Shown here: piece by piece, positions 650 to 17,561 of the stretch | Layout of the letters: every line of letters begins with the position of its first letter | How positions within the stretch are numbered: position 1 is the stretch's first letter | From: Aquificaceae bacterium | GTDB lineage: Bacteria > Aquificota > Aquificia > Aquificales > Aquificaceae | Reading direction: 5' to 3' | Assembly: GCA_027014185.1 (NCBI GenBank) | Contig: JALWEK010000011.1 | Coordinates: 1-17,561 of the forward strand | Length of the DNA: 17,561 nucleotides | Position numbers and translations under genes: made by a program | Notes under the pieces: model-generated | Told to the model about the DNA's origin: nothing | The model's database searches: none | The model's input: the letters and a program-made list of their open reading frames with translations, nothing else

Positions 650-651
650 GG

Positions 652-1436: not shown

Positions 1437-1720
1437 GGGGGATAGACTTCGGGGCCTTCGAGGCCTTTCTGAAGGAGAGAAAGAAGGAGGTAAAGGGTCC
1501 CGAGGACTTTGCACAGGCTCTGAATGAATTCGTCCAGTGGGTAAACGCCCAGCAGAAGGAGGCCAAGGAGATCCGTGAAGCGGTCCTGAGAGGTGAGGAC
1601 GTTCCCCTCCACAGGATGGTAATCGAGTTCGAGAAGGCGGGGTTGGCTCTCAACCTCCTGATAGAGGTCCGAAACAGGCTCCTGGAAGGCTATCAGGAGC
1701 TCCTGAGGATGCAGGTCTGA
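1427..1720 (+). CDS. fliE: Flagellar hook-basal body protein FliE
   Basis: FliE is the small adapter between the MS ring/export gate and the proximal rod and is needed for rod export. The 97-residue product matches FliE in length. It has a variable N-terminal half, then the conserved C-terminal helices VPLHRMVIEFEKAGLALNLL and IEVRNRLLEGYQELLRMQV (residues about 64-97), the usual FliE pattern of a hydrophobic heptad helix with Arg-Asn followed by YQE-RM. The start lies inside the end of flgC (10-nt overlap) and the stop is 1 nt before the fliF ATG at 1722. FliE located between flgC and fliF is the common bacterial order, which supports the call. Confidence 0.93.
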   Translation: MEIGGIDFGAFEAFLKERKKEVKGPEDFAQALNEFVQWVNAQQKEAKEIREAVLRGEDVPLHRMVIEFEKAGLALNLLIEVRNRLLEGYQELLRMQV

Positions 1721-1721
1721 T

Positions 1722-3230
1722 ATGGCTGATATCAACGAGACACTAAAGAACCTTCAGGAGAGGTTTTCGGCCCTACCTCTTACACAGAAGCTCCTCATAA
1801 TCGGCCTTCCCGCGGTAGTCTTCTCCCTGCTGGTTACGGTTCTCATCTACTCCCTTCAGCCCGATTACGCGGTCCTCTACGGGAACCTGAGTCCAGAGGA
1901 CATGAACGCTGTCCTAACAGAACTAGACAAGGAGGGAATCAAGTATAAGGTGGGCAGGGATGGGAGGTCCATCCTCGTTCCCGAGAACAAGGTCAGAGAC
2001 ATAAGGCTCAAGCTCGCCGCGAAGGGGATCCCCAACAAGGGGGTTATAGGGTACGAGCTCTTCGACAAGAGCACGATAGGGCTGTCCGAGTTCCAGCAGA
2101 GGGTGAACTTCAAGAGGGCCATAGAGGGGGAGCTTGTAAGGACGATCCTCAGGTTTAGGAACATAGAGGACGCGAGGGTTCACATAGCCCTGCCTGAGAG
2201 GTCGATCTTCCTCAGGGACGAGAGGGAGCCGAGCGCTTCTGTCTTCATAAGGCTCAAGCCAGGAGCGGAGATCCACCCTGATCAGGTCAAGGCTATAAGG
2301 AACCTGGTGGCTGCGAGTGTGGAGAACCTGAAGCCTGAAAACGTTGTTGTCATAGACGACAGGGGGAGGAACCTTACCGCCATGCTCGAGGACGGGGGTG
2401 AGGAGGCGGTCTCCGCCAAGCAGCTCAAGATAAAGAAGGAGATAGAGAAGGACATAGAGAAGAAGATCCAGACCGCCCTCGAGGAGGCCCTCGGATACGG
2501 GAACGTGAAGGTTCGTGTTTCTGTGGAGCTTGATTTTTCCAAGGTCCAGAGGAAGGAGGAGATCTACGATCCCGATATGACCGCGGTGGTGAGTGAGCAG
2601 AAGAAGAAGGAAAAGACCGCCGGCGTTCCAGTCGGGGGCGTTCCCGGGGCAGCGGCCAACATACCTCCAGGGACGGGAGCAGTAGCTGGACAGACTGGAA
2701 CTATAACCGAGAGGAAGGAGACTATAACCAACTACGAGGTCAGCAAGAAGGAGATAGTCTCGGTGGACCCGACCCTCAGGATAAAGAGGCTCAGCATAGG
2801 GGTGATAGTAAACAAGGAGCTTAAAGACGTAGATGAGGAGAGTGTAAGGAAGATAGTCTCCGCGGCGGCAGGCTTAGATCCAAAGAGGGGGGACACCCTC
2901 TCTGTGGTGGCGATACCCTTCAAGCGCCCAGCTGCGGGCCTTCCCGCTGCTCCCGAGGTTCCCTTGTGGAAGAAGCTACTCGTTCCGGTTCTCGTAGGAT
3001 CAGTCCTAACAGTTCTTCTCCTCTTCGGACTTCTCAGGTTTCTCAGAAGGAGGGCACCCGCCCCTGTACCCGCTCCCGCGCCCGCTGAGGAGATGCCCAC
3101 CATCACCGGAGCAGAGGTTCTGAGGGAGAAGGCCAAGGAACTCGAGGTCGTAAAGACTGTGGTGGAGGTCGCTAGAAAGGAACCCAAGAAGGTTGCCGCC
3201 CTGATAAAGACCTGGCTGAGGGAGGAGTGA
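1722..3230 (+). CDS. fliF: Flagellar MS-ring protein FliF
   Basis: FliF forms the MS ring in the inner membrane and holds the C ring through FliG. The product is 502 residues, a little short for the family (about 520-570). The first membrane helix is at about 23-45 (LLIIGLPAVVFSLLVTVLIY) and is followed by the periplasmic ring-building motifs, including YAVLYGNLSPEDMN and the segment GYELFDKSTIGLSEFQQRVN. A Gly/Ala/Pro-rich loop lies near residue 310, then the second membrane helix at about 417-441. A short Pro-Ala linker (APAPVPAPAPA) precedes the cytoplasmic FliG-binding tail ending KKVAALIKTWLREE. It is the last gene of this cluster; fliG, fliH and fliI do not follow, so the C-ring genes must lie elsewhere. 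The stop directly abuts the stop of the convergent purF. Confidence 0.95.
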   Translation: MADINETLKNLQERFSALPLTQKLLIIGLPAVVFSLLVTVLIYSLQPDYAVLYGNLSPEDMNAVLTELDKEGIKYKVGRDGRSILVPENKVRDIRLKLAAKGIPNKGVIGYELFDKSTIGLSEFQQRVNFKRAIEGELVRTILRFRNIEDARVHIALPERSIFLRDEREPSASVFIRLKPGAEIHPDQVKAIRNLVAASVENLKPENVVVIDDRGRNLTAMLEDGGEEAVSAKQLKIKKEIEKDIEKKIQTALEEALGYGNVKVRVSVELDFSKVQRKEEIYDPDMTAVVSEQKKKEKTAGVPVGGVPGAAANIPPGTGAVAGQTGTITERKETITNYEVSKKEIVSVDPTLRIKRLSIGVIVNKELKDVDEESVRKIVSAAAGLDPKRGDTLSVVAIPFKRPAAGLPAAPEVPLWKKLLVPVLVGSVLTVLLLFGLLRFLRRRAPAPVPAPAPAEEMPTITGAEVLREKAKELEVVKTVVEVARKEPKKVAALIKTWLREE

Positions 3231-4653: not shown

Positions 4654-5304
4654 CTATCTCAGCTGGACAGATGGACTTCCCAGCCTTCCCTTCAGGACAA
4701 GTCTGCCAACGCTCCCCCTGAAGACGGCGTTTATCTCCGAGTCTTCGAGCCTGCTCGGATTTAACTTCAAGCTCCCACCTCCCTGGAGCTTCATGCCGCT
4801 GTACTCAACGCTCCCATCGAACCTATCCCCCTTGAACTCGATATCTACCCTATCAACCCTTATACCCTTTAGATCTAGATTCTCGAGAGACACCCTGCCA
4901 AAGAGCCTGCTCTCCTCAAGTCTGACGTTTCCGTCCACCTTCCCCGCCATCTCCAGACACTCGAAGCCTTCAGCCTCTGCGGATAGGTTGCCAGATAGAG
5001 ATACGTGTCCCTTCAAGTACCCATCTCCGCATACCGCTAAAATCCCCAGGCCGGCCGGCTTGAGGTATACGCCTAGGCTGTCGAGTCTGCTTACAAGCTC
5101 GTTCTTGAAGAAGACTCTAACCCTTCCGAACTCGACTCTGAATGTGCCTTCCTGAACCCTCTCGGGGATGAGGCCTATGCCCTTTGTAGTCAAGAACCTA
5201 TCTAGGATTACGGACTTTGGAAGTGAGAAGAGCACCAGGGTCGAGGAGATCACAAGGGATGCGAGTGTTAAAAGGAGCAGCTTAGAAATAAAAGTCCTCT
5301 TCAT
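4654..5304 (-). CDS. GspN-like type II secretion protein (AsmA-like periplasmic domain)
   Basis: The 216-residue product has a basic N-terminus and one hydrophobic helix (about residues 7-28, LLLLTLASLVISSTLVLF), then a region rich in short alternating beta strands with repeating hydrophobic/Gly patterns (GYLKGHVSLSGNLSAEAEG, FDGSVEYSGMKLQGGGSLKL), ending in GSVGRLVLKGRLGSPSVQLR. This is typical of GspN/AsmA-type proteins: an inner-membrane anchor with a periplasmic beta groove. ATG 5304 is chosen because it gives a short basic tip before the membrane helix; the in-frame TTG at 5340 would add 12 mostly basic residues inside the gspD tail. It overlaps gspD by 23 nt, which ties it to the secretin. 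GspN is often absent from type II systems and its role is unclear. A general AsmA-family protein is the alternative. Confidence 0.6.
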   Translation of the reverse strand: MKRTFISKLLLLTLASLVISSTLVLFSLPKSVILDRFLTTKGIGLIPERVQEGTFRVEFGRVRVFFKNELVSRLDSLGVYLKPAGLGILAVCGDGYLKGHVSLSGNLSAEAEGFECLEMAGKVDGNVRLEESRLFGRVSLENLDLKGIRVDRVDIEFKGDRFDGSVEYSGMKLQGGGSLKLNPSRLEDSEINAVFRGSVGRLVLKGRLGSPSVQLR

Positions 5305-7285
5305 CTTCCTCTTCTTTCTTTTCCTCCTCTCTCTCTTCAAGTCGCCGCTTGATCTCCTCGGACAGCCTTCTGTGCTCTTCGGTGATCCTCGAAAGCTCTT
5401 CTGGGGATGAGACCACGTAGGGCGTTATGAAGATAAAGAGGGTGGTCTTGTCGTCCTGCTTTACGTCCCTCCTGAACAGCCTCCCTATAATGGGGACCCT
5501 CCACAGACCAGGTACCCCCTCCATAGTTCTCAGCGTCTTCGTGCTCACAAGCCCGCCGAGTATAACGGTCTGTCCGTTCTCTATGACCACGTCCGAGTTT
5601 ACCTCCCTATTTGAGGTGACGGGAACGGTGTAACTCGTCGCCCCTATCTGGTTCGTGACGAAGTCTATTATCTCCTGGAGGGTGAGGTCTATGGTGAGGC
5701 GTAGGTTGTCCCCCGATATCCTGGGGGTAACGTTGAGTTCAAGCCCGACCTCCTTGTAGTCGTAAGTTATTATCGGCTGTCCGTTTATATCGAACTTCAG
5801 TCCCTCTGCGTAGGGAACCACCTGACCGACCTTTATCACCGCTGGCTGGTTGTCGAGGGTGAGGACCTTGGGGTTCGAGACTATGTTAAATCCAGACCCG
5901 CTCTCCAGAAGAGAAAAGAGCAGGACCAGATCGGGAAAGAACAGATCGGTGCCGCCTATGGATATAGTCTTGCCCGCTTCCGAGAAGACGCCTATGAGGA
6001 AGTTCCCGGACACGAAGGAGCTGTATATATCTGTTAGTGTGCTACCTCTAAAGCTGGCCCCGCCGCGCTTTCCCAGGATCTGCCATCTCACCCCTATGTC
6101 GAGCAGGCTCTTTGTTGAAGCCTCCACTATGGTGGCAGCTATCAGTACCTGTTTCCTCCTTATGTCCAGCTTTGAGATCAGCTTCTTCAGGCTCTCGTAC
6201 TCCGATCGCGTCCCGTAAAGTATTATCGAGTTTGTCCCCTTATCGAAACCTATCCTCATACCTTCCTTCGTCGTTATAACAGTGAGGGGCTCAGCTCTCG
6301 ATTTCTGAACCGGCTTAGGCCTCTGGGGCTTCCTTCCCTTCATCTGTTTTTGGTACCTGCCCGTAGCCTGAGTGGTCCTCTGGGTCGGCCTCGTGAACCC
6401 CCTCGTAGTCCCGGTACCTTTCAGCAAACTCTGGAGACTCTGGGCTACCTCCTCGGCCGATACGAACCTGAGGGGTATTATGTAAAAGCCCCTTACCTCC
6501 GACACTACCTCTTCGGTATCCACCTCGGAGAGTATCCTCTCTATAGCCTCTTGAGCCCCCCTCGGGGCGAAGACTACCAAGGCGTTCGCCTCCTCGCTGG
6601 AGGATACGACGAGTGGAACCCCGAACCTCTTGCTTACAACGGAGCCGAGGGGAGATACTATCCTAACCGCGTCCCTAGCCGAGAGGTGCTTCAGTTTATA
6701 TACCTTTACCTCACCCTCCACACTGCTCTTATCTATGCTCGACAGTATCCTCTTCGCCTTCTCTATGTTTTCTCCAACATCCGCAACTATCAGGGAGTTG
6801 GAGGGGGCGTGAACAGAGACCCTGGCGAAGGGTGAAAGGAACGGCCTTATAGAGTTCATAGCCGTCTGAGCCTCGGTGTGCTTTAGGTTGAATACAAGGG
6901 TCGCGAGCTCACCTTCGGCCGGCTTCCTCTTTAGCTCTGCTACCGTAACCGCCTCGTTCACCGGAAGTATCTTAACAACCCTGTCCCCTTCCACCACCCC
7001 AAAGCCTTGCATGAACAGGGCGGAGGTGAAAACATCCCAGGCTTCCTCTATCTTTAGAGGCTTTGAGAACACGAGCGTCAGCTTTCCCCTAACGGCCGGA
7101 TCTACTATCACGTTCTTACCTATCAGCTCCCCCATGAAGAGGGCGAGATCCTTAACCTCGGTATCCTGAAAGTTTAGGACCACCTCCCCCTTCTCCTTCT
7201 CTTCTCTGGCGATCTCCTCCAGACTTCTCTCCTCGGCGAATGCAACCAGAAGTACAAAGAGCAGTAAGGTTATAGCTCTCTTCAT
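5282..7285 (-). CDS. gspD: Type II secretion secretin GspD
   Basis: GspD forms the multimeric outer-membrane channel of the type II secretion system. The 667-residue product has a signal peptide (residues 1-17, cleavage likely after AFA) and an N0 domain at about 34-108. Ring-building N1, N2 and N3 domains follow at about 127-186, 193-256 and 264-375. N3 is interrupted by a basic Arg/Lys/Gln/Pro-rich insert at about 294-332. The secretin beta domain runs about 378-625, with the hallmark segments VSNPKVLTLDNQPA (469-482), VTSNREVNSDVVIENGQTVILGGL (556-579) and VPGLWRVPIIGRLF (591-604). The tail 635-667 is a charged Glu/Lys helix ending DEEDFYF, perhaps the part that meets a pilotin or partner. 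It lacks a visible Shine-Dalgarno. The GspN-like gene starts within its last codons. No gspE, F or G lies nearby. Confidence 0.94.
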   Translation of the reverse strand: MKRAITLLLFVLLVAFAEERSLEEIAREEKEKGEVVLNFQDTEVKDLALFMGELIGKNVIVDPAVRGKLTLVFSKPLKIEEAWDVFTSALFMQGFGVVEGDRVVKILPVNEAVTVAELKRKPAEGELATLVFNLKHTEAQTAMNSIRPFLSPFARVSVHAPSNSLIVADVGENIEKAKRILSSIDKSSVEGEVKVYKLKHLSARDAVRIVSPLGSVVSKRFGVPLVVSSSEEANALVVFAPRGAQEAIERILSEVDTEEVVSEVRGFYIIPLRFVSAEEVAQSLQSLLKGTGTTRGFTRPTQRTTQATGRYQKQMKGRKPQRPKPVQKSRAEPLTVITTKEGMRIGFDKGTNSIILYGTRSEYESLKKLISKLDIRRKQVLIAATIVEASTKSLLDIGVRWQILGKRGGASFRGSTLTDIYSSFVSGNFLIGVFSEAGKTISIGGTDLFFPDLVLLFSLLESGSGFNIVSNPKVLTLDNQPAVIKVGQVVPYAEGLKFDINGQPIITYDYKEVGLELNVTPRISGDNLRLTIDLTLQEIIDFVTNQIGATSYTVPVTSNREVNSDVVIENGQTVILGGLVSTKTLRTMEGVPGLWRVPIIGRLFRRDVKQDDKTTLFIFITPYVVSSPEELSRITEEHRRLSEEIKRRLEEREEEKKEEEDEEDFYF

Positions 7286-7320: not shown

Positions 7321-8841
7321 ATGAACCAGAAGCTCGAGCTCGAGACCCTCTACGAGGTCAGCAAGGTCCTATCGGGGAGCTTGAACTTAGAGCAAACCGT
7401 TCCGTACGTGCTGAGGCTTCTAAAGAAGCTCCTGGGCTTCGAGAGGGTAACGCTAACCCTATACGACCCATCTACAGACCAGATAGTGGTGAGGGCTACC
7501 TCTTCCGGCAGCTTCCCGAAGGACGGGTTTAAGAAGGGGGAGGGAATAACGGGGAAGGTCTGGAAGCACGGCGTCCCCATAGTTGTGCCTGACATATCTC
7601 AAGAGCCCGAGTTCCTGAACAAGTTATGGAAGAGGAAGAACTTAAAAGGTAAGAAGATAGCCTTTATAGCCGTCCCTATAAAGGCAGGGGGAAAGGTTGT
7701 CGGGGTTCTGAGCGTCGATAAGGAGATCTCTAAGAGGGAGTCCCTAGACGATTACACGAGGTTCCTCAACATGATAGCTACCCTTATAGCCAACGCCTTC
7801 TCTTTGGAGAGGAAGGTGGAGGAGGAGAGGAGGACTCTGGAGAACGAGAAGAGGGCCCTCGAGGCTGAGCTTAAAAGGGTGTACGAGGACCTTCACGTTG
7901 AGGGTATAGTGGGGAGGAGCAAGGAGATACTCGAGGTCTTAGATCTGATCCACAGGGTGGCTCCCACAAACGCTACGGTTCTCCTCAGGGGTGAGAGCGG
8001 TGTTGGAAAGGAGCTCTTCGCCAGGGCTATCCACTTCCTGAGCCCAAGGGCAGACAAGCCTTTTGTGGCGGTAAACTGCGGGGCCATACCCGAAAACCTC
8101 CTTGAGGCTGAGCTATTCGGGTACGAGAAGGGGGCATTCACGGGGGCTTACTCCTCAAAGAAGGGAAAGTTTGAGCTCGCCCAGGGAGGGACCATCTTTT
8201 TGGACGAGATAGGAGAGCTCCCCCTACAACTCCAGGTGAAGCTCTTGAGGGTCCTTCAGGAGAAGGAGATAGAGAGGCTCGGCGGAACGAAGCCCGTGAA
8301 GGTGGATGTTAGGATAGTGGCGGCAACGAACAGGGATCTCGAGACTATGGTAAGGGAAGGAAAGTTTAGGGAGGACCTTTACTACAGGCTGAGCGTCATT
8401 CCCATCTTCATACCCCCCCTCAGGGAGAGGAAGGAGGACATACCTGTACTAGTCCAGCACTTCCTGGAACGTTTCAAGAAGGAGTACAACAAGGAGGTTA
8501 CAGTCTCCCCCGAGGTCATGGACGCCTTCCTTAACTACGAGTGGAAGGGGAACGTGAGGGAGCTCCAAAATGTTCTCGAGAGGATGGTAATACTCGATAA
8601 CGACGGTATCCTTACAGTCGAGGATCTCCCCCGGGAGATAAGAGGCGGTCAGTCGGAGAGGCCCAGGTACGTTCCGGTTTCTACCAACGGGGAATCCATA
8701 TGGGATGTGGAGAGGAGGCTGATAGAGAAAGCCCTTGAGGAGAGTGGCTTCGTCATAAAGGAGGCGGCGAGGCGCCTGGGGATGACCCCAAGACAGGTGA
8801 GCTACAGGATAAAGAAGTACGGGATAAAATTACCGAGATGA
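7321..8841 (+). CDS. NifA-like sigma-54 enhancer-binding protein (GAF-AAA+-Fis)
   Basis: The 506-residue product has the full architecture of a sigma-54 activator without a receiver domain. A GAF sensor spans about 1-160, a charged coiled coil about 162-192, the AAA+ domain about 195-436, and a Fis-type helix-turn-helix about 463-502. Visible motifs are Walker A GESGVGKE (224-231), the sigma-54-contacting GAFTGA loop (271-276), Walker [11 protein letters not shown] (291-300) and the recognition region [22 protein letters not shown] (481-502), which is close to that of NifA. Activity should therefore depend on a ligand or protein acting on GAF, not on phosphorylation. Aquifex aeolicus is known to encode NifA-like homologues of this type. 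It overlaps the MOSC gene by ATGA and lies opposite the nitrate genes. Control of the sigma-54 promoter at 13647-13662 is inferred. Confidence 0.93.
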
Positions 8842-9605
8842 ACGGTAAGCCTTACCTAGTCAGAATAAGGATATACCCGATAAAGGGCCTAGATCCGCTT
8901 GAGGTGGAGTCAGCAAGTACAACGCCCAGCGGGTCGTTGGAGCACGATAGGGAGTTCGCCCTCTTCGACGAAGAGGGTAATGTGATAAGCGGGAAGAGGG
9001 AGCGCAAGATCCATACGGTAAGGAGTGAGGTGGATTTCGAAACCCAGATATTTCGTTTCGGATACGAGGGAAAGGTCTACGAGTTCTCCTTCGAAGAGAC
9101 GAGGGCTGTGGAGGACTTCTTCTCCGAAGTTTTTGGATACAAGGTTTTTCTGAGGAGATCTGCCGAAGGTTTCCCTGACGATAGGAAGGCACACGGCCCA
9201 ACCCTCGTGAGCAGAGCCACCCTGCTTGAGGTGGCAAGCTGGTTCGATCTGAGCGAGGAGAACGTCCGCAGAAGGTTCAGGGCCAATCTGGAGATCGATG
9301 GTGTTCCTCCCTTCTGGGAGGATTCCCTCGTGGGTGAAGACTCCCCGAAGGAGTTTTACATAGGGGCGGTCCTCTTTGCGGGAGAGGGGATATCGAAGCG
9401 CTGCCCCGTTCCAACGAGGGATCCTGTTACGGGGGAGGAGCTTAAGGGTTTCGTGAAGACTTTCGTGGAAATGAGAAGGAAAACGCTGCCGGAGTGGTCT
9501 CCTAAGAGAAGGTTCGAGGATACCTTCTACAGGCTCTGTGTAAACACTAACGTCCTCAAGGGAGGCCTTCTGAAGGTCGGTGATGAGCTAAGACCTTTAC
9601 ACTGA
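8838..9605 (+). CDS. MOSC-domain molybdenum protein, YcbX/mARC-like
   Basis: The 255-residue product has an N-terminal beta-barrel segment typical of MOSC_N ([40 protein letters not shown]) and a C-terminal MOSC domain. [11 protein letters not shown] (145-155) matches the conserved RFRPNL-type segment. Cys189 in [16 protein letters not shown] corresponds to the conserved Cys that ligates molybdenum in mARC and YcbX. Known relatives bind Moco and reduce N-hydroxylated compounds or deliver cofactor. No fused ferredoxin domain is present, unlike some YcbX proteins. The start overlaps the regulator stop (ATGA), so the two are translated together, and the last 50 bp overlap the convergent narB. 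Helping the molybdoenzyme NarB, or dealing with reactive N-hydroxy by-products, is inference. The true substrate is unknown. Confidence 0.82.
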
Positions 9606-11577
9606 CCCCGGAGTACTTTAGGTCGGGCTCCTTCGAGTAGGGATCTACCCTGTCCGTAAGGAGGAGGTTGACCGGTTCCCCGAACTCCTTGGGATATCCG
9701 AACGGTGCGAATATGTGGCCCCTCTTCACGTTGGAGAACCTCACCACCCTGACCACCTTCTTGGAACCTTTGCACAGAACCACCTCGTCCCCCTCTTCTA
9801 TTCCGAGCTCCAGAGCATCCTCTGGGTTCATGAGTACGAAGGGGGGTATCTCGCCCTTCAGGAGCTGAGGGCTCTTTCCCGTTTTAGTCATAGTGTGCCA
9901 CTGGTTCTTAAGCCTGCCTGTAATCAGGACGAACTCTCCCCTCTCGGTAGCTACCTCGAACTTTGCGGGATGAAGCCTCGCCCTTCCGCTTTCTGTAGGA
10001 AATCTCAGATCTCCGTAAAGCCAGTTGCCACCCCACCTTGCGGGCAGCTTATCGTAAGAAAGACCGCTTACATCGCACAGCCTCCCCTCTGTGGACCTTT
10101 TGAACTCCTCGAACACATCGGAGTTGGACCTGTAGGGGAAGAGACGCTTGGCCCCCATGAGCTTCGCCAGCTCGGTAAATATAAGCCAGTCAGGTTTCGA
10201 CTCGCCGTAAGGCTCCTTAAACTTTTCACAGTAGGTTATCGTCCTGTCAGAGCCTGTCATGGTCCCCTCCTTCTCCCCGAGCTGGGCCGCGGGTAGTATC
10301 AGGTTGGCATACTCGCAGGTATCGTTCCAGTAAGAGTCCTGTACTACAAGGAACACCCTCTCCAGAGCGCTGTGAACCTTGTCTAGGTTCGGCAGGGATA
10401 CCGCCGGATTAGTGCAGACTACCCAGAGGAGCTTTATCTTTTCTTCGAGTATCAGATCGACGGCCTCAGTTATCGTCGGGCCCGGTTCAGATCTTATTCC
10501 CTCAACCCCCCAGAACCTCTCCATAAACCTTCTGTCCGAAGGGTTCCTCACATCCCTGTATCCCGGAAGGCCGTTGGACAGGTACCCGACCTCCCTTCCT
10601 CCCATGGCGTTTGGCTGTCCAGTGAGTGAAAAGGGACATCCCTTTCCGTTGAGCCTTCCGGTCGCAAGATGCAGGTTTATCAGGGCAAGGTTTTTCATAG
10701 TTCCGTTTATCGACTGGTTCAGCCCCTGGCACCAGAAGGATATGAGCTTCTTGCTCTTGGCAAATGCTTCGGCCACGAGGTATATGTCTTCCTCTCTCAC
10801 ATCACATACGCTCGCCGCCACCTCGGGGGGGAACTTCCTCGCCTGCTCCAAGGCCTCCTCGAACCCTTCCGTGTACTTCTCGATGAACTCGAAGTCTATC
10901 CACCCCTCCCTGTGCAATACGTAAAGGACAGAGTTCAGGAAGGCTGTGTCCGTTCCCGCCCTTATCTGTATGAATACGTCGCTCTTCTTGGCGGTCTCAG
11001 TTTCAACCGGATCTATAGTGATCACCACCGCCCTCTCGAGCTCCCTCCTCCTCTTTAAAACCCTTTTGAACAGGACGGGATGGGCTATAGCCGCGTTGGA
11101 GCCTATGAATAGGAACGTGTCCGCGTCGTCTATATCCTCGTAGGAGCAGGGAGGGCCATCTGAGCCGAAGGCCATCTTGTAGGCCGTCACGGCGGTTGCC
11201 ATGCACAGCCTCGAGTTCGCGTCTATGTTGTTCGTTCTGAGGAAGCCTTTTACAAACTTGTTGGCCACGTATATGTCCTCGGTCAGAAGCTGACCGGAGA
11301 GGTAGAAGTAGGTTTCGCTCGGGTCTAGGGAGCTGAGCCTGTCCGCAAGTATCCTGTAGGCCTCCTCCCAGCTTATCTCCCTGAAGTTTTCCCTCTTGCT
11401 TTCCCTGTAAAGCGGTCTTCCCACCCTTCCCTCGTCCATGATCTTGGGAAGGTAGATGGGTTTCTTGCATATATCACCGCGGTTTGCCGGGTGCTCGAAG
11501 TCCCCTTTGATCCTGTCCCTGTCGTCTATGTAAAGCCCGCATCCTACCCCGCAGTAAGGACACTGGAAGGTCTTCAT
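9556..11577 (-). CDS. narB: Assimilatory nitrate reductase, molybdopterin catalytic subunit
   Basis: NarB reduces nitrate to nitrite in the cytoplasm. The 673-residue product starts with the [4Fe-4S] motif C6-x2-C9-x3-C13-x23-C37 (CPYCGVGCG, then GDICKKP). The Mo-ligand Cys is probably C125 in NSRLCMATAV, followed by YKMAFGSDGPPCSYEDIDDAD, the family segment near the molybdopterin guanine dinucleotide site. The C-terminal MGD-binding barrel is present (VLITGRLKNQWHTMTKTGKS, FVLMNPEDALELGIEEGDEV). There is no C-terminal [2Fe-2S] extension and no flavin partner gene, so a ferredoxin-dependent, cyanobacterial-type enzyme is likely. ATG 11577 overlaps the narK stop by ATGA. About 10 residues beyond the usual end give a 50-bp tail-to-tail overlap with the MOSC gene. 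A formate dehydrogenase is unlikely given NarK, NirA and CobA nearby. Confidence 0.92.
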   Translation of the reverse strand: MKTFQCPYCGVGCGLYIDDRDRIKGDFEHPANRGDICKKPIYLPKIMDEGRVGRPLYRESKRENFREISWEEAYRILADRLSSLDPSETYFYLSGQLLTEDIYVANKFVKGFLRTNNIDANSRLCMATAVTAYKMAFGSDGPPCSYEDIDDADTFLFIGSNAAIAHPVLFKRVLKRRRELERAVVITIDPVETETAKKSDVFIQIRAGTDTAFLNSVLYVLHREGWIDFEFIEKYTEGFEEALEQARKFPPEVAASVCDVREEDIYLVAEAFAKSKKLISFWCQGLNQSINGTMKNLALINLHLATGRLNGKGCPFSLTGQPNAMGGREVGYLSNGLPGYRDVRNPSDRRFMERFWGVEGIRSEPGPTITEAVDLILEEKIKLLWVVCTNPAVSLPNLDKVHSALERVFLVVQDSYWNDTCEYANLILPAAQLGEKEGTMTGSDRTITYCEKFKEPYGESKPDWLIFTELAKLMGAKRLFPYRSNSDVFEEFKRSTEGRLCDVSGLSYDKLPARWGGNWLYGDLRFPTESGRARLHPAKFEVATERGEFVLITGRLKNQWHTMTKTGKSPQLLKGEIPPFVLMNPEDALELGIEEGDEVVLCKGSKKVVRVVRFSNVKRGHIFAPFGYPKEFGEPVNLLLTDRVDPYSKEPDLKYSGVSVKVLAHHRPSEGLP

Positions 11578-13001
11578 GCTCCGATCTCCATTATCACCCT
11601 ACCCGTTCTCGGGTCTATACCAACGAGCTGCTCCTTCTCGTAGTCGTAACGAACGTGAGCCCACTCCATCCACTTAGCGTGGAGGAGCTTAACGATGACC
11701 AGACAAACGAGGGCCAAGCCTCCGAAGAAGGCGAAGGCGAGGCTGTACGTTCCCGTTGCCTCGAAGACTATACCGTTCACCGTGGGAAGGTAAAAGCCTC
11801 CTATCCCTCCCGCCGCACCGATTATTCCGGTCATCAGACCCGTCTTGTAGGGCCATCTGTGTGGTACCAGCTGGAAGACAGCTCCGTTCCCTAGCCCGTA
11901 GAAGGAGTACAGTGTCAAGAACAGGAGTATTCCCAGAGCCAGAGGGGGCGTGAAGGCAGCGAAGAGAAAGTTCACCCCCGCTATTCCGCCGAGGAAGAAG
12001 AGGAGTGCCGTTGCCCCGCTTATCTTGTCAGCTATGTGTCCACCAAGGGGCCTTATCATCGCCCCGGTAAAGGCGAAGAGGGACATAAGCATCCCGGCCT
12101 CCACCTTGGAGATCCCATAGACGTCCCTCAGGAGCATAGCCACGTAGGAGGACATTCCCACAAAGCCACCGAAGGTTATGGAGTATGCCAGCATAAGAAC
12201 CCAGGTATCCCTCTCGACGAACACCTTTTTAAAGGCACGAGGCATGAGCATTATCGCGAAGGCCGAGCCCAGGACCGGTATGAGGAGCTTGCCCACGTTT
12301 CCGTTTATCCCGAGCCATCCCTTATGTATGGAGAGCGCCAGGAGAAGCATGAAGGACATTGTCGCGAAGAAGGCTAGGAAGGGGTAAACCTTGTTGCCCT
12401 CGCTCTTTGGAGTTCTGTCCTTGGCCCACAGCACCACAAGCACCAGCGCTATGAGAAGTAAAATCCCTGAGAGGACGAAGGTCCGCTCCCAACCCACAAC
12501 CCTGGCGATTGGGGGAAAGAGGATTCCGTCCAATACGGCCCCTATGTTCCCTGCGGCGGCAAGACCCAGGACAAGCCCCTGTACCTCCTTGGGATAGTTG
12601 CTGCCGGCCATCGGTAATGCTATGGCGAAGCTCGCCCCCGCAACTCCGAGAAAAACACCCATCCAGATGAGATCCTCGTAACTGACCCTGAAACCGGTGA
12701 GGATCATGTAGATATGTGGTGTGAGTGAGAGAAGGATGCCCATAACGGCTATGTACCTTCCATCTACGTACTGAAACATGTGTCCGAAGTTGAGCCTGAA
12801 TATGGCGGCCGCTATCACCGGGATCGCCACCATGAAGCCCTTCTGTGCACCCGATAGCCCGAAGGACTCGGCTATGAAAGGACCTAAAGCACCGAGGAGG
12901 AGCCATATGCTGAAGGAGTGGTCGAAGTATATGAAGCTGGCAAATAGCGCCTTTGGATTCCCTTTCCTTACCGCTTCCAGCACCTCCGAGATAAGGTTCA
13001 T
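11574..13001 (-). CDS. narK: NarK-family nitrate/nitrite MFS transporter
   Basis: The 475-residue product has about 12 hydrophobic segments and the NarK/NRT markers. A substrate-site Arg lies in the second helix region (AAIFRLNFGHMFQYVDGRY) and a second Arg in LFAFTGAMIRPLGGHIADK. One nitrate-signature glycine helix is LGLAAAGNIGAVLDGI, and the other runs from LGNGAVFQLVPHRWP through TGIIGAAGGIGGFYLP. ATG 13001 is chosen because AAGGAGG lies 7 nt upstream and the ATG overlaps the P-II stop (ATGA). An in-frame codon at 13031 would add ten residues inside the P-II gene. The C-terminus is cytoplasmic and overlaps narB by 4 nt. It supplies nitrate to NarB. The tight coupling to a P-II gene recalls glnK-amtB and suggests post-translational control of transport (inference). 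Confidence 0.92.
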   Translation of the reverse strand: MNLISEVLEAVRKGNPKALFASFIYFDHSFSIWLLLGALGPFIAESFGLSGAQKGFMVAIPVIAAAIFRLNFGHMFQYVDGRYIAVMGILLSLTPHIYMILTGFRVSYEDLIWMGVFLGVAGASFAIALPMAGSNYPKEVQGLVLGLAAAGNIGAVLDGILFPPIARVVGWERTFVLSGILLLIALVLVVLWAKDRTPKSEGNKVYPFLAFFATMSFMLLLALSIHKGWLGINGNVGKLLIPVLGSAFAIMLMPRAFKKVFVERDTWVLMLAYSITFGGFVGMSSYVAMLLRDVYGISKVEAGMLMSLFAFTGAMIRPLGGHIADKISGATALLFFLGGIAGVNFLFAAFTPPLALGILLFLTLYSFYGLGNGAVFQLVPHRWPYKTGLMTGIIGAAGGIGGFYLPTVNGIVFEATGTYSLAFAFFGGLALVCLVIVKLLHAKWMEWAHVRYDYEKEQLVGIDPRTGRVIMEIGA

Positions 13002-13618
13002 AGACCTTCCTCCTTGGTTCTTATGGTCCACACCTTCGAGATGTTGCAGACGAACACCTTTCCATCCCCGTAAGCTCCGGTGTGGGCAGATTTAGTTATC
13101 GTTGAGACCACCTTCTCAACGTCCTCGTCCTCCACCGCCACCATGATCAGTGTCTTGGCGAGCTCGTCGTAGAGGGTCTCCCCAACCATAACGCCACCCT
13201 CCTTTCCCCTGCCAACTACGTCCCACATGGTCATCGCCTTGAAGCCCTTTTTCTCAAGGGCCTTTATGACCTCATAGACCTTCTCAGGTCTTATAACGGC
13301 CTTTACGAGCTTCATCGTGCTCTCCTCCTTTTCATCTATTAGAAACACCTTCCCGTCTCCGTAAGCGCCAGTATGGGCTGAATCGATGATCAGCTTCACA
13401 GTGTCCTCCTCCTTTCCCTCTTCGGGAAACAGGAGGAAGGCCCTTTTGGGTAGAAAGGGCATGAGAACCTTCTCCCTTATAAGCCCCTTGTATCTCAGGC
13501 CCCCTTCCTTTCCCCTTCCTTTAACAGTCCATGAAACGTAGGGAAGTTCCGCCTTTGCGAGCGCCTTCATGACATCGTAGGACCTCTCCTTCCTAACTAT
13601 AGCTAGGATCTCGGACAT
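12998..13618 (-). CDS. Tandem-fused double P-II (NifI-like) nitrogen regulatory protein
   Basis: The 206-residue product contains two complete P-II ferredoxin-like domains, about 1-96 and 102-206, where ordinary GlnB/GlnK is about 112 residues with one. Both keep GRGKEGG at the start of the T-loop (34-40 and 136-142) and an identical B-loop SAHTGAYGDGKVF (80-92 and 177-189), so two ATP/ADP sites per chain are expected. Domain 2 resembles NifI1 (YDELAKTLIMVAVEDEDVEKV) and keeps the C-loop TIRTKEEGL. Domain 1 is closer to NifI2 or general P-II (MPFLPKRAFLLF) and lacks a C-loop, running straight into the linker. Trimeric P-II would become a pseudo-hexamer or a mixed trimer. The start is set by AGGAGGA 7 nt upstream and the sigma-54 promoter. 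It probably senses 2-oxoglutarate/ATP/ADP and acts on NarK, NarB or the NifA-like activator (inference). Confidence 0.9.
   Translation of the reverse strand: MSEILAIVRKERSYDVMKALAKAELPYVSWTVKGRGKEGGLRYKGLIREKVLMPFLPKRAFLLFPEEGKEEDTVKLIIDSAHTGAYGDGKVFLIDEKEESTMKLVKAVIRPEKVYEVIKALEKKGFKAMTMWDVVGRGKEGGVMVGETLYDELAKTLIMVAVEDEDVEKVVSTITKSAHTGAYGDGKVFVCNISKVWTIRTKEEGL
13005..13015 (-). promoter_or_regulatory. Ribosome binding site deciding the narK start
   Basis: AAGGAGGAAGG on the minus strand places its AAGGAGG core 7 nt before ATG 13001. It lies inside the last codons of the P-II gene, consistent with coupled translation through the ATGA overlap at 12998-13001. Confidence 0.75.
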
Positions 13619-13646: not shown

Positions 13647-13662
13647 GGCAAGAAGTGTGCCA
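13647..13662 (-). promoter_or_regulatory. Sigma-54 (RpoN) -24/-12 promoter for P-II-narK-narB
   Basis: The minus strand reads TGGCAC (13662-13657), five bases, then TTGCC (13651-13647). This matches the RpoN consensus TGGCAC-N5-TTGC exactly, including the invariant GG and GC pairs at the required spacing. Transcription should start near 13636 and give a 17-nt leader that carries AGGAGGA and ends at ATG 13618. The element is also the core of a perfect inverted repeat TTTGGCA-N7-TGCCAAA (13644-13664), which could in addition be an operator. It is the only intergenic space in the nitrate block. Sigma-54 promoters need an AAA+ activator; the candidate is the NifA-like gene at 7321-8841. Confidence 0.82.
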
Positions 13663-13723: not shown

Positions 13724-13750
13724 CTACAATATTGTAGTTACAATTTTGTC
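13724..13750. promoter_or_regulatory. Alternating TACAAT/ATTGTA half-sites, candidate enhancer (UAS)
   Basis: A perfect 14-bp palindrome CTACAATATTGTAG (13724-13737) is followed by TTACAATTTTGTC. Together they give half-sites TACAAT (13725-13730), ATTGTA (13731-13736), TACAAT (13739-13744) and a degenerate TTTGT. The dyad centres fall about 95 and 102 bp upstream of the predicted sigma-54 start, within the range where enhancer-binding proteins usually bind. It covers the last codons and stop of the TrpD2-like gene. It does not fit the classic NifA TGT-N10-ACA site. It is not a terminator: the stem is AT-only with no T-run after it. Confidence 0.5.
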
Positions 13751-14653
13751 TATACCCTCCCTGACGCTCTCTGCTCTGTTTCCTGCGTATAGGAGAAGGC
13801 CGGCGGTGTAGATAGCCCAGTTCAGGAACTCTCCCCTCTCCTTCCCCTCCACTATACTCCTGTTGATCTCTACAGAATCCCCGAGGACGTTTTCCGTCTG
13901 AACATCCTTTGGAAGCTCTAGTTCGATCTCCTTGGGATCTATCACCTCGAGCTCCTCCCCTCTCTTCTTCACGTACGTGGGTCTGTCCGGCAGGGGCTCG
14001 ATGCCCCCCTCGAGGCCCTTGACTATAGTGTAATCCTCGAGGTTGAGGAGCTCTAAGAGCTTCTCGTTCTTCTCAAAGTAAGGCTTGTGAAAGATAGAAA
14101 CCGCTACCATCTTTGTGCCGAACGGGTTTAAGAACTTCTCAACGGTGTTTATCAGGCTCCTGAACCCAAGCTCTCTACGTAGAGGCATGAGCCTGTAAAG
14201 CCCCGGAGCGTAATCCTTCTGATCCGAGAAGCTGATATTGAGGTCCATACCCATAGCCCTAACAACCTCCTGCAGTGTAACCCCCTCCTTTGTAGGTGTC
14301 CTCAAAGCGAAGTGGTTGGTGAACTCCATTCCAATCCGCGAGCACAGCCAAAGGGCCGCGGGGAGTATGTATATGGTCCTGTTCTTACCGTCGTAGTTGA
14401 GGGCAAGATCGAGGGCTCTCTCCCGTCTTTTTGGACGGTTCATGCTATCTTCTATAGCCCTTTTGACTCCCAAAAGTTCCCCAGAGGTTTCACCCTTTAT
14501 CCTCATGGCTGTAAGGAAGGCCGAGATCTTTACCTCGGAGAGTTTTCCTTCGAGGATCCTCTTGAAGATCTCGTATGCTTCCTCCTCCGTCAGATCCTGC
14601 AGGTTTTCCCTGAGCTTGGTGAGCTTTTTAAAAGCTCTCGTGATAGAGTCCAT
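13724..14653 (-). CDS. TrpD2-like protein (anthranilate phosphoribosyltransferase fold), degenerate active site
   Basis: The 309-residue product follows the fold of anthranilate phosphoribosyltransferase. The helical N-terminal domain reads LTEEEAYEIFKRILEGKLSEVKISAFLTAMRIKGET, then comes the alpha/beta domain (VTLQEVVRAMGMDLN, YRLMPLRRELGFRSLINTVEKFLNPFG). The PRPP loop that reads GTGGD in TrpD is replaced by LALNYDGKNRTIYILP (about residues 83-98), so tryptophan synthesis activity is unlikely. This is the pattern of the TrpD2/YbiB group, for which E. coli YbiB has been reported to bind nucleic acid. The start is 3 bp after the cobA stop, so it belongs to the nirA-FNT-cobA message. No trp genes are nearby. 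Its tie to nitrite reduction suggests a regulatory or RNA/DNA-binding role (inference). Confidence 0.75.
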   Translation of the reverse strand: MDSITRAFKKLTKLRENLQDLTEEEAYEIFKRILEGKLSEVKISAFLTAMRIKGETSGELLGVKRAIEDSMNRPKRRERALDLALNYDGKNRTIYILPAALWLCSRIGMEFTNHFALRTPTKEGVTLQEVVRAMGMDLNISFSDQKDYAPGLYRLMPLRRELGFRSLINTVEKFLNPFGTKMVAVSIFHKPYFEKNEKLLELLNLEDYTIVKGLEGGIEPLPDRPTYVKKRGEELEVIDPKEIELELPKDVQTENVLGDSVEINRSIVEGKERGEFLNWAIYTAGLLLYAGNRAESVREGIDKIVTTIL

Positions 14654-15392: not shown

Positions 15393-16220
15393 TCAGGCCG
15401 CCTCTTCCACGACTTCGGTTCTCTTCATATCTTCCCTCTTCCTGTGGGTGAAGTAGAGGGCCAGTCCTGTAAAGGTCAGGCCGCCGATTATGTTCCCGAT
15501 GGTGACGGGTATCTGGTTCCAGACCCACCACTCGTAAAGGCCTATATCAGCACCGAAGAACATGCCTGTGGGCATCAGGAACATGTTCACCACCGCATGC
15601 TCGAAGCCGAGGGCAAAGAAGGTGAGTATGGGAAGCCACATGGCAGCGATCTTCCCGATAACGTGCTGAGCCGTCATCGCCATCACGGCCCCGAGGGTCA
15701 CCATCCAGTTGCATAGGATAGCCTTCACTATCGCCAAGGTCCATCCGTCCATAAATCCCAGCTTGGCGTACCCCAAAGTGTTCGCCTCGGCCACCTTAGC
15801 TATCATCTTGCCCACCGTCGGGTCCGGAACGGTACCCATCTTGGTAGAGGCAAGGTAGAACATGTATCCGTAGAAGGCGGTTCCTAAGAGATGACCGATG
15901 TAAACCCACACCCAGTTGTAGATCATACGGCCGAAGGTTGCCCTCTTTTCCAGCAGGGCCACCGGGATGAGGGCGAAGTTACCGGTAACGAGCTCAAGCC
16001 CGAGCAGAACTATCATCACGAACCCGAGGGGAAATACGAGAGAGCCCACGATCCTCATCTCCGACTGGGCTATCGCGGAGAAGGCGACCGTTACCGCGTA
16101 GCCCAGCAGGGCTCCCGCCAGGAACCCCCTTATCAGCAGGTCCTTTGCGGACAGGCCCGCCTTGTAGGCTCCCGCCTGAATCATCTGCTCCACTACGGTT
16201 TCGGGTTTAACGTACCCCAT
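15393..16220 (-). CDS. Formate/nitrite transporter (FNT) family channel, probable nitrite channel
   Basis: FNT proteins are pentameric inner-membrane channels for formate, nitrite or hydrosulfide. The 275-residue product has six hydrophobic segments and the family markers: LLIRGFLAGALLGYAVTVA, LELVTGNFALIPVALLEKR (75-93), ILCNWMVTLGAVMA (168-181), the central-pore His208 in GFEHAVVNMF, and NQIPVTIGNIIGG (235-247). The start overlaps the nirA stop by 14 nt and follows AGGAGGTGG. With nirA upstream and cobA downstream, nitrite is the likely substrate, either uptake or return of leaked nitrite. It is a second transport protein besides NarK, which suggests use of external nitrite. Formate or hydrosulfide cannot be excluded from sequence alone. 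The C-terminal tail is short and charged. Confidence 0.9.
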   Translation of the reverse strand: MGYVKPETVVEQMIQAGAYKAGLSAKDLLIRGFLAGALLGYAVTVAFSAIAQSEMRIVGSLVFPLGFVMIVLLGLELVTGNFALIPVALLEKRATFGRMIYNWVWVYIGHLLGTAFYGYMFYLASTKMGTVPDPTVGKMIAKVAEANTLGYAKLGFMDGWTLAIVKAILCNWMVTLGAVMAMTAQHVIGKIAAMWLPILTFFALGFEHAVVNMFLMPTGMFFGADIGLYEWWVWNQIPVTIGNIIGGLTFTGLALYFTHRKREDMKRTEVVEEAA

Positions 16221-17561
16221 GCTCCACCTCCTGTAAGAGATTTATGAGAACGGCCCTGAGGTTGTCAGGACCGACCCTGTGCGCGAACTGGGCGAAGCTC
16301 TCCCCCTCCTGCCTGTTCTCTAGGTAGTATTGGACGAGGAGCTCGGTAGCCTCCTCGGCCTTGTCTAGGGGAAGTCCCTGGACTACCTTGAAGCCTTCTA
16401 GGGAGGTGGAGCCTCCTGCGAATATGTCCACAGCAAGAACGGCTTCGTTGCCTATCTTGGTCTTGGTTCCCACAAAGCCTATATCTCCGCACCCGTGCTG
16501 GCCGCAACCCTTAGCACATGCGGACCAGTGCATCCTTATGGGAGTGTCGAGCTTTATCTTCTGGGACAGGTAATTGGCCACTCTCATCGCGTTGCTCTTG
16601 TTGGGTATGACTCCAAAACCGCAGGTGTCGCTTCCGGCACAGGCTATGAGGTGCGTCATGAACGGGGAGCTGACGGTCGGATACCTCTGGAAGAACTCCT
16701 CCGAGAGGAGGGCGTCGAGGTTCTCCTCGGGAACGTTGGGTATGTAGAGGTTCTGGTATACGCTGAGTCTGAGCTCCCTGCTTCCGTATTTCCTCGCAAG
16801 CTCCGCCGCTGTCCTGAGATCTTTCGCCTTTATCTTGCCGGCGGGAACTATTGCAGAAACCGCAAAGGTTCCGTTTCTGAGGTTTATAACGCCTTCCCTC
16901 TCTCCCCATCTGTTTACCAGATCTTCCCCTTTCGAGGGTAGTGGCTTGTAGAGCCTCTGCTCTATCTCCTCCCTCAACCTGTCCACCCCCCACTCCTGGA
17001 GTAGGAAGAAGAGCCTGTTTTTGGATCTGTTTTCCCTGTTTCCGAAGGTGGAGTAGATGTCGAAGATCACCCTGCAGAGATCCGGAGCCTCGTAAGGCTC
17101 TATGAACACGTCCATATCTATCGCCTTGACGGGCCCTCCTGAACCTATCTTCCCACCGAGGTATAAGTTGAAGCCCAGCTTCCCTTCCCTCTCAGCGAGG
17201 TATAGGCATATATCGTTGAACTGGGCGTTTATGGAATCCGTCTGGGAACCTAAAACTGCAACGTTGAACTTCCTCGGCATATCGGCGTACCTCTTCTTAC
17301 CGAGGAACACCTTGGTTATCTCCTGAGAGAGCCTCAGTGTATCTATGAGGGAGTCCTCGGCGAGCCCGGTGAGGGGGTCCCCGGTGACGTTCCTTATGTT
17401 GTCCATACCGGTTTGAAGGGTCGAGAGCCCTACACTGTTGAGAGCTTCTAAGATCTCAGGTATGTTCTTTAGCTCTATCCATCTTATCTGGAGCTGCTGG
17501 CGTGAGGTTATCTCCACCTCACCCCTGCAGAACTTCTCCGAGAGATGAGATACCACTCTGG
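16207..17561 (-). CDS. nirA: Ferredoxin-nitrite reductase, 5' end outside the window
   Basis: NirA reduces nitrite to ammonium with six electrons using siroheme and a [4Fe-4S] cluster. The frame stays open through the window edge, and the GTG near 17556 falls inside the conserved N-terminal ferredoxin-like domain, so the true start and roughly the first 60-100 residues are missing. The 450 visible residues show EITSRQQLQIRWIELKNIPE, the siroheme-domain segments NIRNVTGDPLTGL and MPRKFNVAVLGS, and the cluster ligands C-x5-C (ACAGSDTCGF, Cys codons at 16639-16641 and 16621-16623) and C-x3-C (ACAKGCG, codons at 16516-16518 and 16504-16506). Sulfite reductase is the alternative, but narB, narK, FNT and cobA favour nitrite. 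The stop lies 14 nt inside the FNT gene. The promoter is off the window. Confidence 0.92.
   Translation of the reverse strand, partial: RVVSHLSEKFCRGEVEITSRQQLQIRWIELKNIPEILEALNSVGLSTLQTGMDNIRNVTGDPLTGLAEDSLIDTLRLSQEITKVFLGKKRYADMPRKFNVAVLGSQTDSINAQFNDICLYLAEREGKLGFNLYLGGKIGSGGPVKAIDMDVFIEPYEAPDLCRVIFDIYSTFGNRENRSKNRLFFLLQEWGVDRLREEIEQRLYKPLPSKGEDLVNRWGEREGVINLRNGTFAVSAIVPAGKIKAKDLRTAAELARKYGSRELRLSVYQNLYIPNVPEENLDALLSEEFFQRYPTVSSPFMTHLIACAGSDTCGFGVIPNKSNAMRVANYLSQKIKLDTPIRMHWSACAKGCGQHGCGDIGFVGTKTKIGNEAVLAVDIFAGGSTSLEGFKVVQGLPLDKAEEATELLVQYYLENRQEGESFAQFAHRVGPDNLRAVLINLLQEVEHGVR
16224..16232 (-). promoter_or_regulatory. Strong ribosome binding site of the FNT gene
   Basis: AGGAGGTGG on the minus strand, with its AGGAGG core 6 nt before ATG 16220, lies inside the last codons of nirA. 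It fixes the FNT start within the nirA overlap and predicts strong translation of the channel. Confidence 0.75.

What the first reader, a model, noticed from the sequence alone, without database searches (positions are those of the whole stretch)
12998..13618. Double-domain P-II protein, probably a NifI2-NifI1-like fusion, leading a nitrate operon
One 206-residue chain holds two P-II domains that share an identical 13-residue B-loop and a GRGKEGG T-loop start but differ between those motifs. Domain 2 is NifI1-like and keeps its C-loop; domain 1 is more NifI2-like and has lost it. NifI1 and NifI2 are normally separate genes next to nifH and act directly on nitrogenase. Here the fused pair precedes a nitrate transporter and nitrate reductase. 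A fusion fixes the ratio of the two protomers and could create asymmetric effector sites.
Basis: partly seen in the sequence, partly recalled or inferred. Interest (0 to 1): 0.75.

Follow-up and report, generated by a model that had tools for sequence, protein, structure and literature searches.

The report
Fused nitrogen-sensor pair with internal start
A heat-loving bacterium carries, at the head of its nitrate genes, two nitrogen-sensor proteins fused into one, and the gene seems to keep a second start signal so that the back half could also be made alone in extra copies.

Summary
Minus-strand 12998-13618 encodes 206 aa with two P-II (PF00543) domains. It is no error: the protein collection holds 48 near-full-length doubles, and 21 of 136 Aquificota genomes have the fused gene, all in one family. 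Aquifex aeolicus has it, named 'PII-like protein GlnBi'. Nine kin genomes have the halves as overlapping separate genes. Domain 2 is NifI1-type. Domain 1 is probably NifI2-type, not proven (AU tests undecided). The gene leads a NarK-NarB unit behind a sigma-54 promoter; a NifA-like activator is nearby. Omnitrophota nitrate clusters hold a similar couple as separate genes.

New here: domain 2 keeps its own start signal inside the fused gene. In 20 of 20 complete fused loci GGAGG lies 7-8 nt before an in-frame ATG (16) or GTG (4) at the domain-2 start; 48 of 48 doubles have linkers compatible with it, background 6%. So fusion probably does not fix a 1:1 ratio: D1-D2 plus free D2 is expected, which would allow the 2:1 NifI1:NifI2 chain ratio of PDB 9p1x. 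No experiment tests this.

The parts
12998..13618 (-). fused double P-II gene (206 aa)
   Evidence: 48 near-full-length relatives
13334..13618 (-). domain 1 (residues 1-95), NifI2-type most likely, C-loop absent
   Evidence: profile scores undecided
13001..13315 (-). domain 2 (residues 102-206), NifI1-type, C-loop kept
13324..13328 (-). internal Shine-Dalgarno core GGAGG in the linker, 8 nt before the domain-2 ATG
   Evidence: GGAGG at 7 or 8 nt in 20 of 20 complete fused loci
13313..13315 (-). internal in-frame start codon (ATG, Met102) of domain 2
   Evidence: ATG in 16 and GTG in 4 of 20 loci; Met in 41 and Val in 7 of 48 proteins
13648..13662 (-). sigma-54 promoter TGGCACACTTCTTGC
   Evidence: only match in the window at up to 1 mismatch, with 0 mismatches; a similar site in 19 of 20 fused loci
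11574..13031 (-). NarK-family nitrate/nitrite transporter; its likely ATG at 12999-13001 overlaps the P-II stop (ATGA)
   Evidence: TIGR00886, 318.6 bits, cut-off 311.7; overlap read
9556..11577 (-). molybdopterin oxidoreductase, assimilatory nitrate reductase (NarB/NasA-like) by context
   Evidence: PF00384, PF01568, PF04879; no NCBIfam cut-off reached
7321..8841 (+). NifA-like sigma-54 activator (GAF, AAA+, HTH), candidate activator of the unit
   Evidence: TIGR01817 NifA, 551 bits, cut-off 528.85
16207..17556 (-). NirA-type nitrite reductase; its N-terminal part is probably cut by the contig end
   Evidence: PF01077, PF03460; longer NirA ORFs in kin loci such as L037 and L038

Best explanation
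The gene encodes a NifI-type P-II couple that serves nitrate assimilation instead of nitrogenase; in one Aquificota family the couple became a single gene. Transcription starts at the sigma-54 promoter just upstream, probably driven by the nearby NifA-like activator under nitrogen limitation. Translation from the first start gives a D1-D2 chain. The conserved internal ribosome-binding site and start codon give additional free D2. One D1-D2 chain plus one free D2 can complete a P-II trimer D1:D2:D2, the 1:2 make-up of NifI2:NifI1. This asymmetric trimer reads ATP/ADP and 2-oxoglutarate and, when nitrogen is plentiful, binds and inhibits a neighbour in the nitrate system (NarB and/or NarK), by analogy with NifI1,2 blocking the NifH site on NifDK. 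Shown by sequence: the fusion, its conservation, the nitrate linkage, the promoter and the internal start signals. Inferred: that the internal start is used, the trimer make-up, the ligands, the target and the direction of control.
For: Internal start: in 20 of 20 complete fused loci ATG (16) or GTG (4) stands at the D2 start with GGAGG 7 or 8 nt upstream. Pairing with the anti-SD is -11.0 or stronger in 20 of 20 (mean -12.0); of other in-frame start-like codons in the same genes 18 of 189 reach this, and 2 of 78 ATGs. GGAGG is read in two codon phases (17 loci and 3 loci), so the nucleotides stay while the residues change. 48 of 48 double proteins fit (45 distinct linkers), background 544 of 9058 positions (6.0%). 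The 16S end with CCTCC was found in 4 of 6 genomes asked (not in the window's own MAG or G062). Leaders: a sigma-54 site precedes D1 in 19 of 20, and in 15 of 20 the predicted leader is 1-5 nt without an SD before D1, so there D2 has the stronger signal. Couple: nine kin genomes with separate overlapping PIIa/PIIb genes; tree. Ratio: PDB 9p1x holds 12 chains of a 105-aa P-II nearest D2, 6 chains of a 125-aa P-II and 6 NifK chains. Nitrate linkage: NarK next door in 20 of 20 fused loci; in the family 28 of 34 genomes with NarB (E 1e-150 or better) carry the couple against 2 of 30 others (Fisher p 4e-10, kinship not corrected); Omnitrophota nitrate clusters. [quoted passage not shown]
Against: No expression data: use of the internal start is untested. 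Single-locus synonymous shuffles are weak evidence (2.5% to 49% of shuffles reach the observed strength in 18 loci), because the linker residues themselves favour GGAGG; the case rests on conservation across changing linkers. The loci are kin. In the window itself the first start also has a good SD (-10.2, against -11.6 inside). D1 as NifI2-type is not settled. G035 and G041 keep the split couple without a NarB match, and six genomes of the family have NarB without the couple. Both halves have Glu at the Gln39 position (40 of 40 Aquificota rows), so 2-oxoglutarate binding cannot be assumed.
Confidence: 0.58

Rival explanations
1. Only the fused chain is made. Three chains form two linked trimers, (D1)3 and (D2)3, or a mixed hexamer; the ratio is 1:1, and the SD-like linker is an acidic or glycine linker, or a relic of the separate genes.
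For: Synonymous shuffles of single loci often reach the observed SD strength. The AlphaFold model has fair confidence over the linker (mean pLDDT 78 and 84 for residues 91-110) and pTM 0.74, so an ordered single chain is plausible.
Against: A relic should have decayed: doubles are as low as 56% identical to the window's, and 48 proteins have 45 distinct linkers, yet all fit GGAGG plus Met or Val. Val at the start is coded GTG in 4 of 4 loci against 24% of Val codons elsewhere (the four are one genus, so perhaps one event).
Confidence: 0.25
2. Domain 1 is not NifI2 but an old duplicate of domain 2, or a GlnK derivative, that diverged fast and lost its C-loop; the likeness to a NifI2-NifI1 couple is convergent.
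For: AU tests do not reject D1+D2 (p 0.295) or D1+GlnB/K (p 0.342). Profile scores for D1/PIIa are nearly tied. Both halves share Glu39, absent from nif NifI1 (26 rows) and GlnB/K (16 rows).
Against: D1 lies outside the NifI1+GlnB/K group (77 rows, 99/98) and beside Omnitrophota nitrate PIIa (31 rows, 89/87). Glu3 is shared only with NifI2-type rows, and Glu39 also occurs in 5 of 14 Omnitrophota nitrate PIIa rows. PIIa-PIIb-NarK-NarB order recurs in Omnitrophota, where PIIa still has its C-loop; the two scored there (L069, L073) are best on the NifI2 profile.
Confidence: 0.25
3. The target is the transporter alone: the fused P-II plugs NarK, as GlnK does AmtB and as cyanobacterial PII acts on nitrate uptake, and NarB is only co-transcribed.
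For: NarK is next downstream in 20 of 20 fused loci, with an ATGA overlap in the window. PII control of nitrate uptake in cyanobacteria is the title subject of PMC6603209 (listing only).
Against: In split relatives the next labelled gene is NarK, NrtA of an ABC transporter, or cyanate lyase, while NarB stays in the cluster in 7 of 9. In Omnitrophota a couple also stands on both sides of a nitrite reductase in 4 of 8 nitrate regions, which fits enzyme targets better.
Confidence: 0.35

Closest known systems
NifI1/NifI2 (nitrogenase P-II couple; PDB 9p1x)
   Same: D2 is in the NifI1-type clade; D1 probably NifI2-type; two partners encoded side by side; the 12:6 chain ratio of 9p1x would fit extra D2.
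   Different: Here fused, order reversed (NifI2-type first), beside nitrate genes and not nif, D1 without C-loop and without the long T-loop of nif NifI2, Gln39 is Glu in both halves.
Aquifex aeolicus 'PII-like protein GlnBi' (P0010)
   Same: Orthologue, 83% identical over the full length; same fusion and same internal start signals (L038).
   Different: Its gene follows globin and cyanate lyase genes and lacks the adjacent sigma-54 site. A search for the name GlnBi gave 22 papers, 20 listed, none about this protein by title.
Split PIIa/PIIb couples of other Aquificaceae and of Omnitrophota nitrate clusters
   Same: Same order, before NarK, NrtA or cyanate lyase and NarB; PIIb is NifI1-type.
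   Different: Two genes; Omnitrophota PIIa keeps its C-loop, and 4 of 8 nitrate regions have two couples.
Genes with internal in-frame starts that add copies of a C-terminal subunit (Cas11 from cas8/cas10d; SctQ of type III secretion; both recalled)
   Same: One gene would give a long chain and its C-terminal part as a separate subunit in excess.
   Different: I found no such report for P-II proteins, but I ran no search aimed at internal starts; here unproven.
Cyanobacterial PII (GlnB) controlling nitrate uptake
   Same: P-II control of nitrate assimilation (PMC6603209, listing only).
   Different: That is a canonical homotrimer (recalled). The window's genome has its own GlnB-like gene beside a GlnA-like gene (GlnA named by eye).

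Membership tests
P-II superfamily (PF00543) | Pfam P-II match over the gathering score in each half | tested here: met
NifI1 (domain 2) | Sequence clade with NifI1, apart from GlnB/GlnK | tested here: met
   61 rows 100/99; best profile in 24 of 24 D2/PIIb rows
NifI2 (domain 1) | Sequence clade with NifI2 | tested here: inconclusive
   Side of tree and Glu3 for it; profiles nearly tied and AU tests undecided
NifI1/NifI2 couple proper | Encoded in a nif cluster beside nifH/nifD | tested here: not met
   The window's neighbours are nitrate genes. So it is not filed as NifI.
NifI1/NifI2 couple proper | Binds and inhibits a target enzyme, relieved by 2-oxoglutarate and ATP | not testable with these tools
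   Needs biochemistry
Canonical GlnB/GlnK | Falls in the GlnB/GlnK clade | tested here: inconclusive
   Neither half lies there in the tree (D2 firmly with NifI1), but AU does not reject D1+GlnB/K (p 0.342)
Canonical GlnB/GlnK | Gln39 (role in ligand binding recalled) | tested here: not met
   Glu in 40 of 40 D1, PIIa, D2, PIIb rows; Gln in 16 of 16 GlnB/K rows
Gene with a functional internal in-frame start | Conserved SD and start codon at the domain boundary | tested here: met
   20 of 20 loci; 48 of 48 proteins compatible
Gene with a functional internal in-frame start | The short product is made in cells | not testable with these tools
   No proteomics or ribosome profiling on hand

The most novel reading that the evidence does not exclude
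A nitrogenase-type P-II couple has been re-aimed at nitrate assimilation in at least two phyla, and in Aquificaceae it became one gene that sets a 1:2 subunit ratio by an internal translation start inside the domain linker, giving built-in asymmetric trimers that sequester the nitrate reductase (or transporter) as NifI1,2 sequesters nitrogenase.
Probability: 0.45. Interest if true: 0.78.

Novelty: new variant of a known kind. Interest (0 to 1): 0.6.

Why it matters
P-II proteins are mostly known as homotrimers (recalled), which makes it hard to say what each subunit does. A gene that makes a long chain plus extra free copies of one domain would be a natural single-gene heterotrimer with defined asymmetry, heat-stable and easy to study. 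It would also show that the NifI way of switching off an enzyme is not confined to nitrogenase. Aquifex aeolicus carries the gene, so the claims can be tested directly.

Tried and rejected
Sequencing error or chimera: rejected by 20 complete fused loci and 48 proteins. Recent duplication: rejected by 42% identity and 8 of 39 nucleotide differences inside the identical B-loop; an old duplication is not rejected.

Fusions elsewhere: a search with the alignment of doubles showed, in its best 120 of 2670 hits, one further multi-P-II protein, P0233, whose glycine-serine linkers mark it as an engineered construct. Only 7997 candidates were scored, so distant fusions may be missed.

Structure: one AlphaFold model (mean pLDDT 79, pTM 0.74). 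VIA-align rows cover only residues 100-206, so the fold match is shown for domain 2; domain 1 was not modelled alone. Neither shows the oligomer. 9p1x was not among the 50 rows printed by Foldseek or the 50 entries printed by VIA-align; that proves nothing.

Literature: ten searches, judged from listings, showed no described double P-II or nitrate-linked NifI couple; passages were read in five papers. Subscription papers and preprints are not held, so this is weak evidence of absence. One preprint title seen in a reference list (Maslac et al. [quoted passage not shown]

For the same reason the two window rows of the first tree were wrong at the edges, and with them its AU tests (D1+NifI2 p 0.343, D1+GlnB/K p 0.383; D1+D2 p 0.401); one test there (D1+D2+NifI1) did not finish. 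Corrected rows went into the second tree, on which I rely; D1+NifI2 as one clade was not tested on it. Rows dropped for the second tree: five named rows (mostly long branches) and the rows of four kin loci. L013, L019 and L026 were not parsed by the first start-site script. The genes of L013 and L019 are as L042 and L047; L026 is cut by a contig end and is not among the 20.
Full report
What is there. The minus-strand ORF 12998-13618 encodes 206 residues with two P-II domains. The halves are 42% identical. They share the 13-residue B-loop SAHTGAYGDGKVF, but 8 of its 39 nucleotides differ, so the identity is kept by selection and is not a fresh copy. Both have GRGKEGG. Domain 2 keeps the C-loop; domain 1 ends before it.

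How widespread it is. A search of about 5.8 billion proteins gave 48 near-full-length doubles (P0002-P0049, 56-97% identical), among them Aquifex aeolicus, where the protein is named 'PII-like protein GlnBi', and Hydrogenivirga caldilitoris. Of 136 Aquificota genomes (the window's own included), 21 have the fused gene, one of them cut by a contig end. Nine more have two overlapping genes in its place: PIIa (96-100 aa, also without a C-loop) and PIIb. All 30 are in one family. A wider profile search showed only one further multi-P-II protein among its best 120 hits, P0233, an engineered construct.

Neighbourhood. In 20 of 20 fused loci examined (19 fetched plus the window) NarK is next downstream. 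In the window the likely NarK ATG overlaps the P-II stop. NarK passes its NCBIfam cut-off; the molybdenum enzyme after it passes none, and its nitrate reductase role is by context. Within the family of 64 genomes, 34 have NarB at E 1e-150 or better; 28 of these carry the couple (21 fused, 7 split), and 2 of the other 30 do (Fisher p 4e-10, not corrected for kinship; two weaker or partial matches, G027 and G040, count as without). The two exceptions are G035 and G041. The six NarB genomes without the couple are G008, G016, G017, G018, G026 and G052. Other Aquificota families (f2, f3) also have close NarB relatives, and none of their genomes gave a double or split couple of this kind among the matches listed.

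Promoter. TGGCACACTTCTTGC at 13648-13662 (-) is the only site in the window at up to one mismatch, and it has none; 63 of 200 shuffles also had at least one match at that tolerance. The same element scores 9 of 11 or better within 120 nt upstream of domain 1 in 19 of 20 fused loci, against a mean shuffle probability of 0.2% per locus. A. aeolicus (L038) is the exception; there the gene follows globin and cyanate lyase genes. The window also encodes a NifA-like activator over its cut-off. Studholme et al. 2000 (J Bacteriol 182:1616; reference line seen, paper not held, content recalled) studied an A. aeolicus NifA-like protein and sigma-N promoters, so this transcription layer is not new.

Internal start. 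At the domain-2 boundary 20 of 20 complete fused loci have a start codon, ATG in 16 and GTG in 4, with GGAGG 7 or 8 nt before it. Pairing energy with the anti-SD is -11.0 or stronger in 20 of 20, mean -12.0. Of 189 other in-frame start-like codons in the same genes 18 reach this, and of 78 ATGs only 2. GGAGG is read in one codon phase in 17 loci and in another in 3 (L045, L046, L049), so the nucleotide motif survives changes of residue and phase. For the 48 double proteins, whose DNA I mostly did not have, the residue at the domain-2 start is Met (41) or Val (7), and the two residues that would encode GGAGG fit in 48 of 48 (41 in one phase, 7 in the other), with 45 distinct linkers, against 6.0% of other positions.

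Weak points of the internal start. Single-locus synonymous shuffles reach the observed strength in 2.5% to 49% of cases (18 loci). The loci are kin, and the four GTG loci are one genus. In 15 of 20 loci the predicted leader before domain 1 is 1-5 nt with no SD, so there the internal start carries the stronger signal; in the window the first start has an SD too (-10.2, against -11.6).

What the halves are. Profiles were built from nif NifI1 (26 rows), nif NifI2 (22) and GlnB/K (18) (used). D2/PIIb score best as NifI1 in 24 of 24, on average by about 29 (PIIb) to 38 bits (D2) over the next profile; D1/PIIa split 13, 9 and 2 with near ties. In the second tree (142 rows, 113 columns) D2/PIIb is 100/99 and lies in a 61-row NifI1-type clade (100/99). 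NifI1-type and GlnB/K rows form 77 rows at 99/98, which excludes D1. D1/PIIa with two further proteins is 100/99 and sits beside nitrate-linked PIIa of Omnitrophota (31 rows, 89/87). AU tests do not reject D1+D2 (p 0.295) or D1+GlnB/K (p 0.342). Residue 3 is Glu in 19 of 20 D1/PIIa, 19 of 21 NifI2 and 14 of 14 Omnitrophota nitrate PIIa rows, and in 0 of 20 D2/PIIb, 0 of 26 NifI1, 0 of 15 Omnitrophota PIIb and 0 of 16 GlnB/K rows. I take NifI2-type as likely, not shown.

The couple outside Aquificota. In Omnitrophota locus L069 the order is nitrite reductase, PIIa, PIIb, NarK-like, NarB-like, MoaA-like (Pfam for the first and for the NarK- and NarB-like genes; MoaA by eye). In a sample of 384 genomes of that phylum 18 had a NifI1-type match at E 1e-20. 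I fetched 12 regions from 11 of these genomes: eight regions (seven genomes) have nitrate or nitrite genes beside PIIa/PIIb, and four regions have nifH-NifI1-NifI2-nifD order. Four of the eight (L175, L176, L177, L179) have two couples. In four (L176, L177, L180, L186) PIIa and PIIb stand on either side of a nitrite reductase. Omnitrophota PIIa mostly keeps its C-loop. The order of the couples by NarK or NrtA, NifI2-type first, is the one seen here and the reverse of the nif clusters.

Mechanism. [quoted passage not shown] PDB entry 9p1x contains 12 chains of a 105-aa P-II closest to domain 2, 6 chains of a 125-aa P-II and 6 NifK chains: a 2:1 ratio. That these two P-II are NifI1 and NifI2 is my reading of the sequences and of the nitrogenase partner; the entry names both only as P-II proteins. 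A D1-D2 chain plus a free D2 would give the same ratio in one trimer. This ties the internal start to a purpose, but it is inference. NarB, NarK or NirA as target is also inference. Both halves have Glu at the Gln39 position in 40 of 40 Aquificota rows; Gln39 takes part in Mg-ATP/2-oxoglutarate binding (recalled), so the ligand response must be measured.

Verdict. The claim that fusion fixes the ratio is probably wrong, and the reason it is wrong is the most interesting part.

Noticed in passing
L175-L181, L186 (Omnitrophota): Nitrate clusters with NifI-type couples; four of these eight regions have two couples, and in four PIIa and PIIb stand on either side of a nitrite reductase, which carries a Rieske domain in L176.
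   Followed up: partly
window 13724-14653: TrpD-like glycosyl transferase family 3 gene inside the nitrate cluster, also in 10 of 19 fetched fused loci; below the trpD cut-off. Its role in nitrate assimilation is unexplained.
   Followed up: no
Aquificota couples, GlnB positions 39-40: Both halves have Glu39 and Gly40 (40 of 40 rows), while no nif NifI1 or GlnB/K row has Glu39; 5 of 14 Omnitrophota nitrate PIIa rows have Glu39, and Gly40 occurs in 4 of 21 NifI2 and 1 of 14 Omnitrophota PIIa rows. Why both partners changed is unknown.
   Followed up: partly
L059 (G035), L062 (G041): Split couple kept although no NarB match was found in the genome.
   Followed up: no
L003 1489-3248 (G000:C22): A 108-aa P-II-family protein next to a DabA inorganic-carbon transporter gene in the window's genome.
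   Followed up: no
P0096, P0101: 109-aa hybrids with a domain-1 front and a domain-2 tail joined at the shared B-loop; real deletions or assembly collapse.
   Followed up: no
L055 7111-8697; L038 6528-7526: Globin and cyanate lyase genes next to the P-II couple in Aquificaceae nitrate clusters.
   Followed up: no
window 613-3230 and 5282-7285: Flagellar-looking genes and a secretin-like gene in the rest of the window, named by eye only; they look ordinary and unrelated.
   Followed up: no
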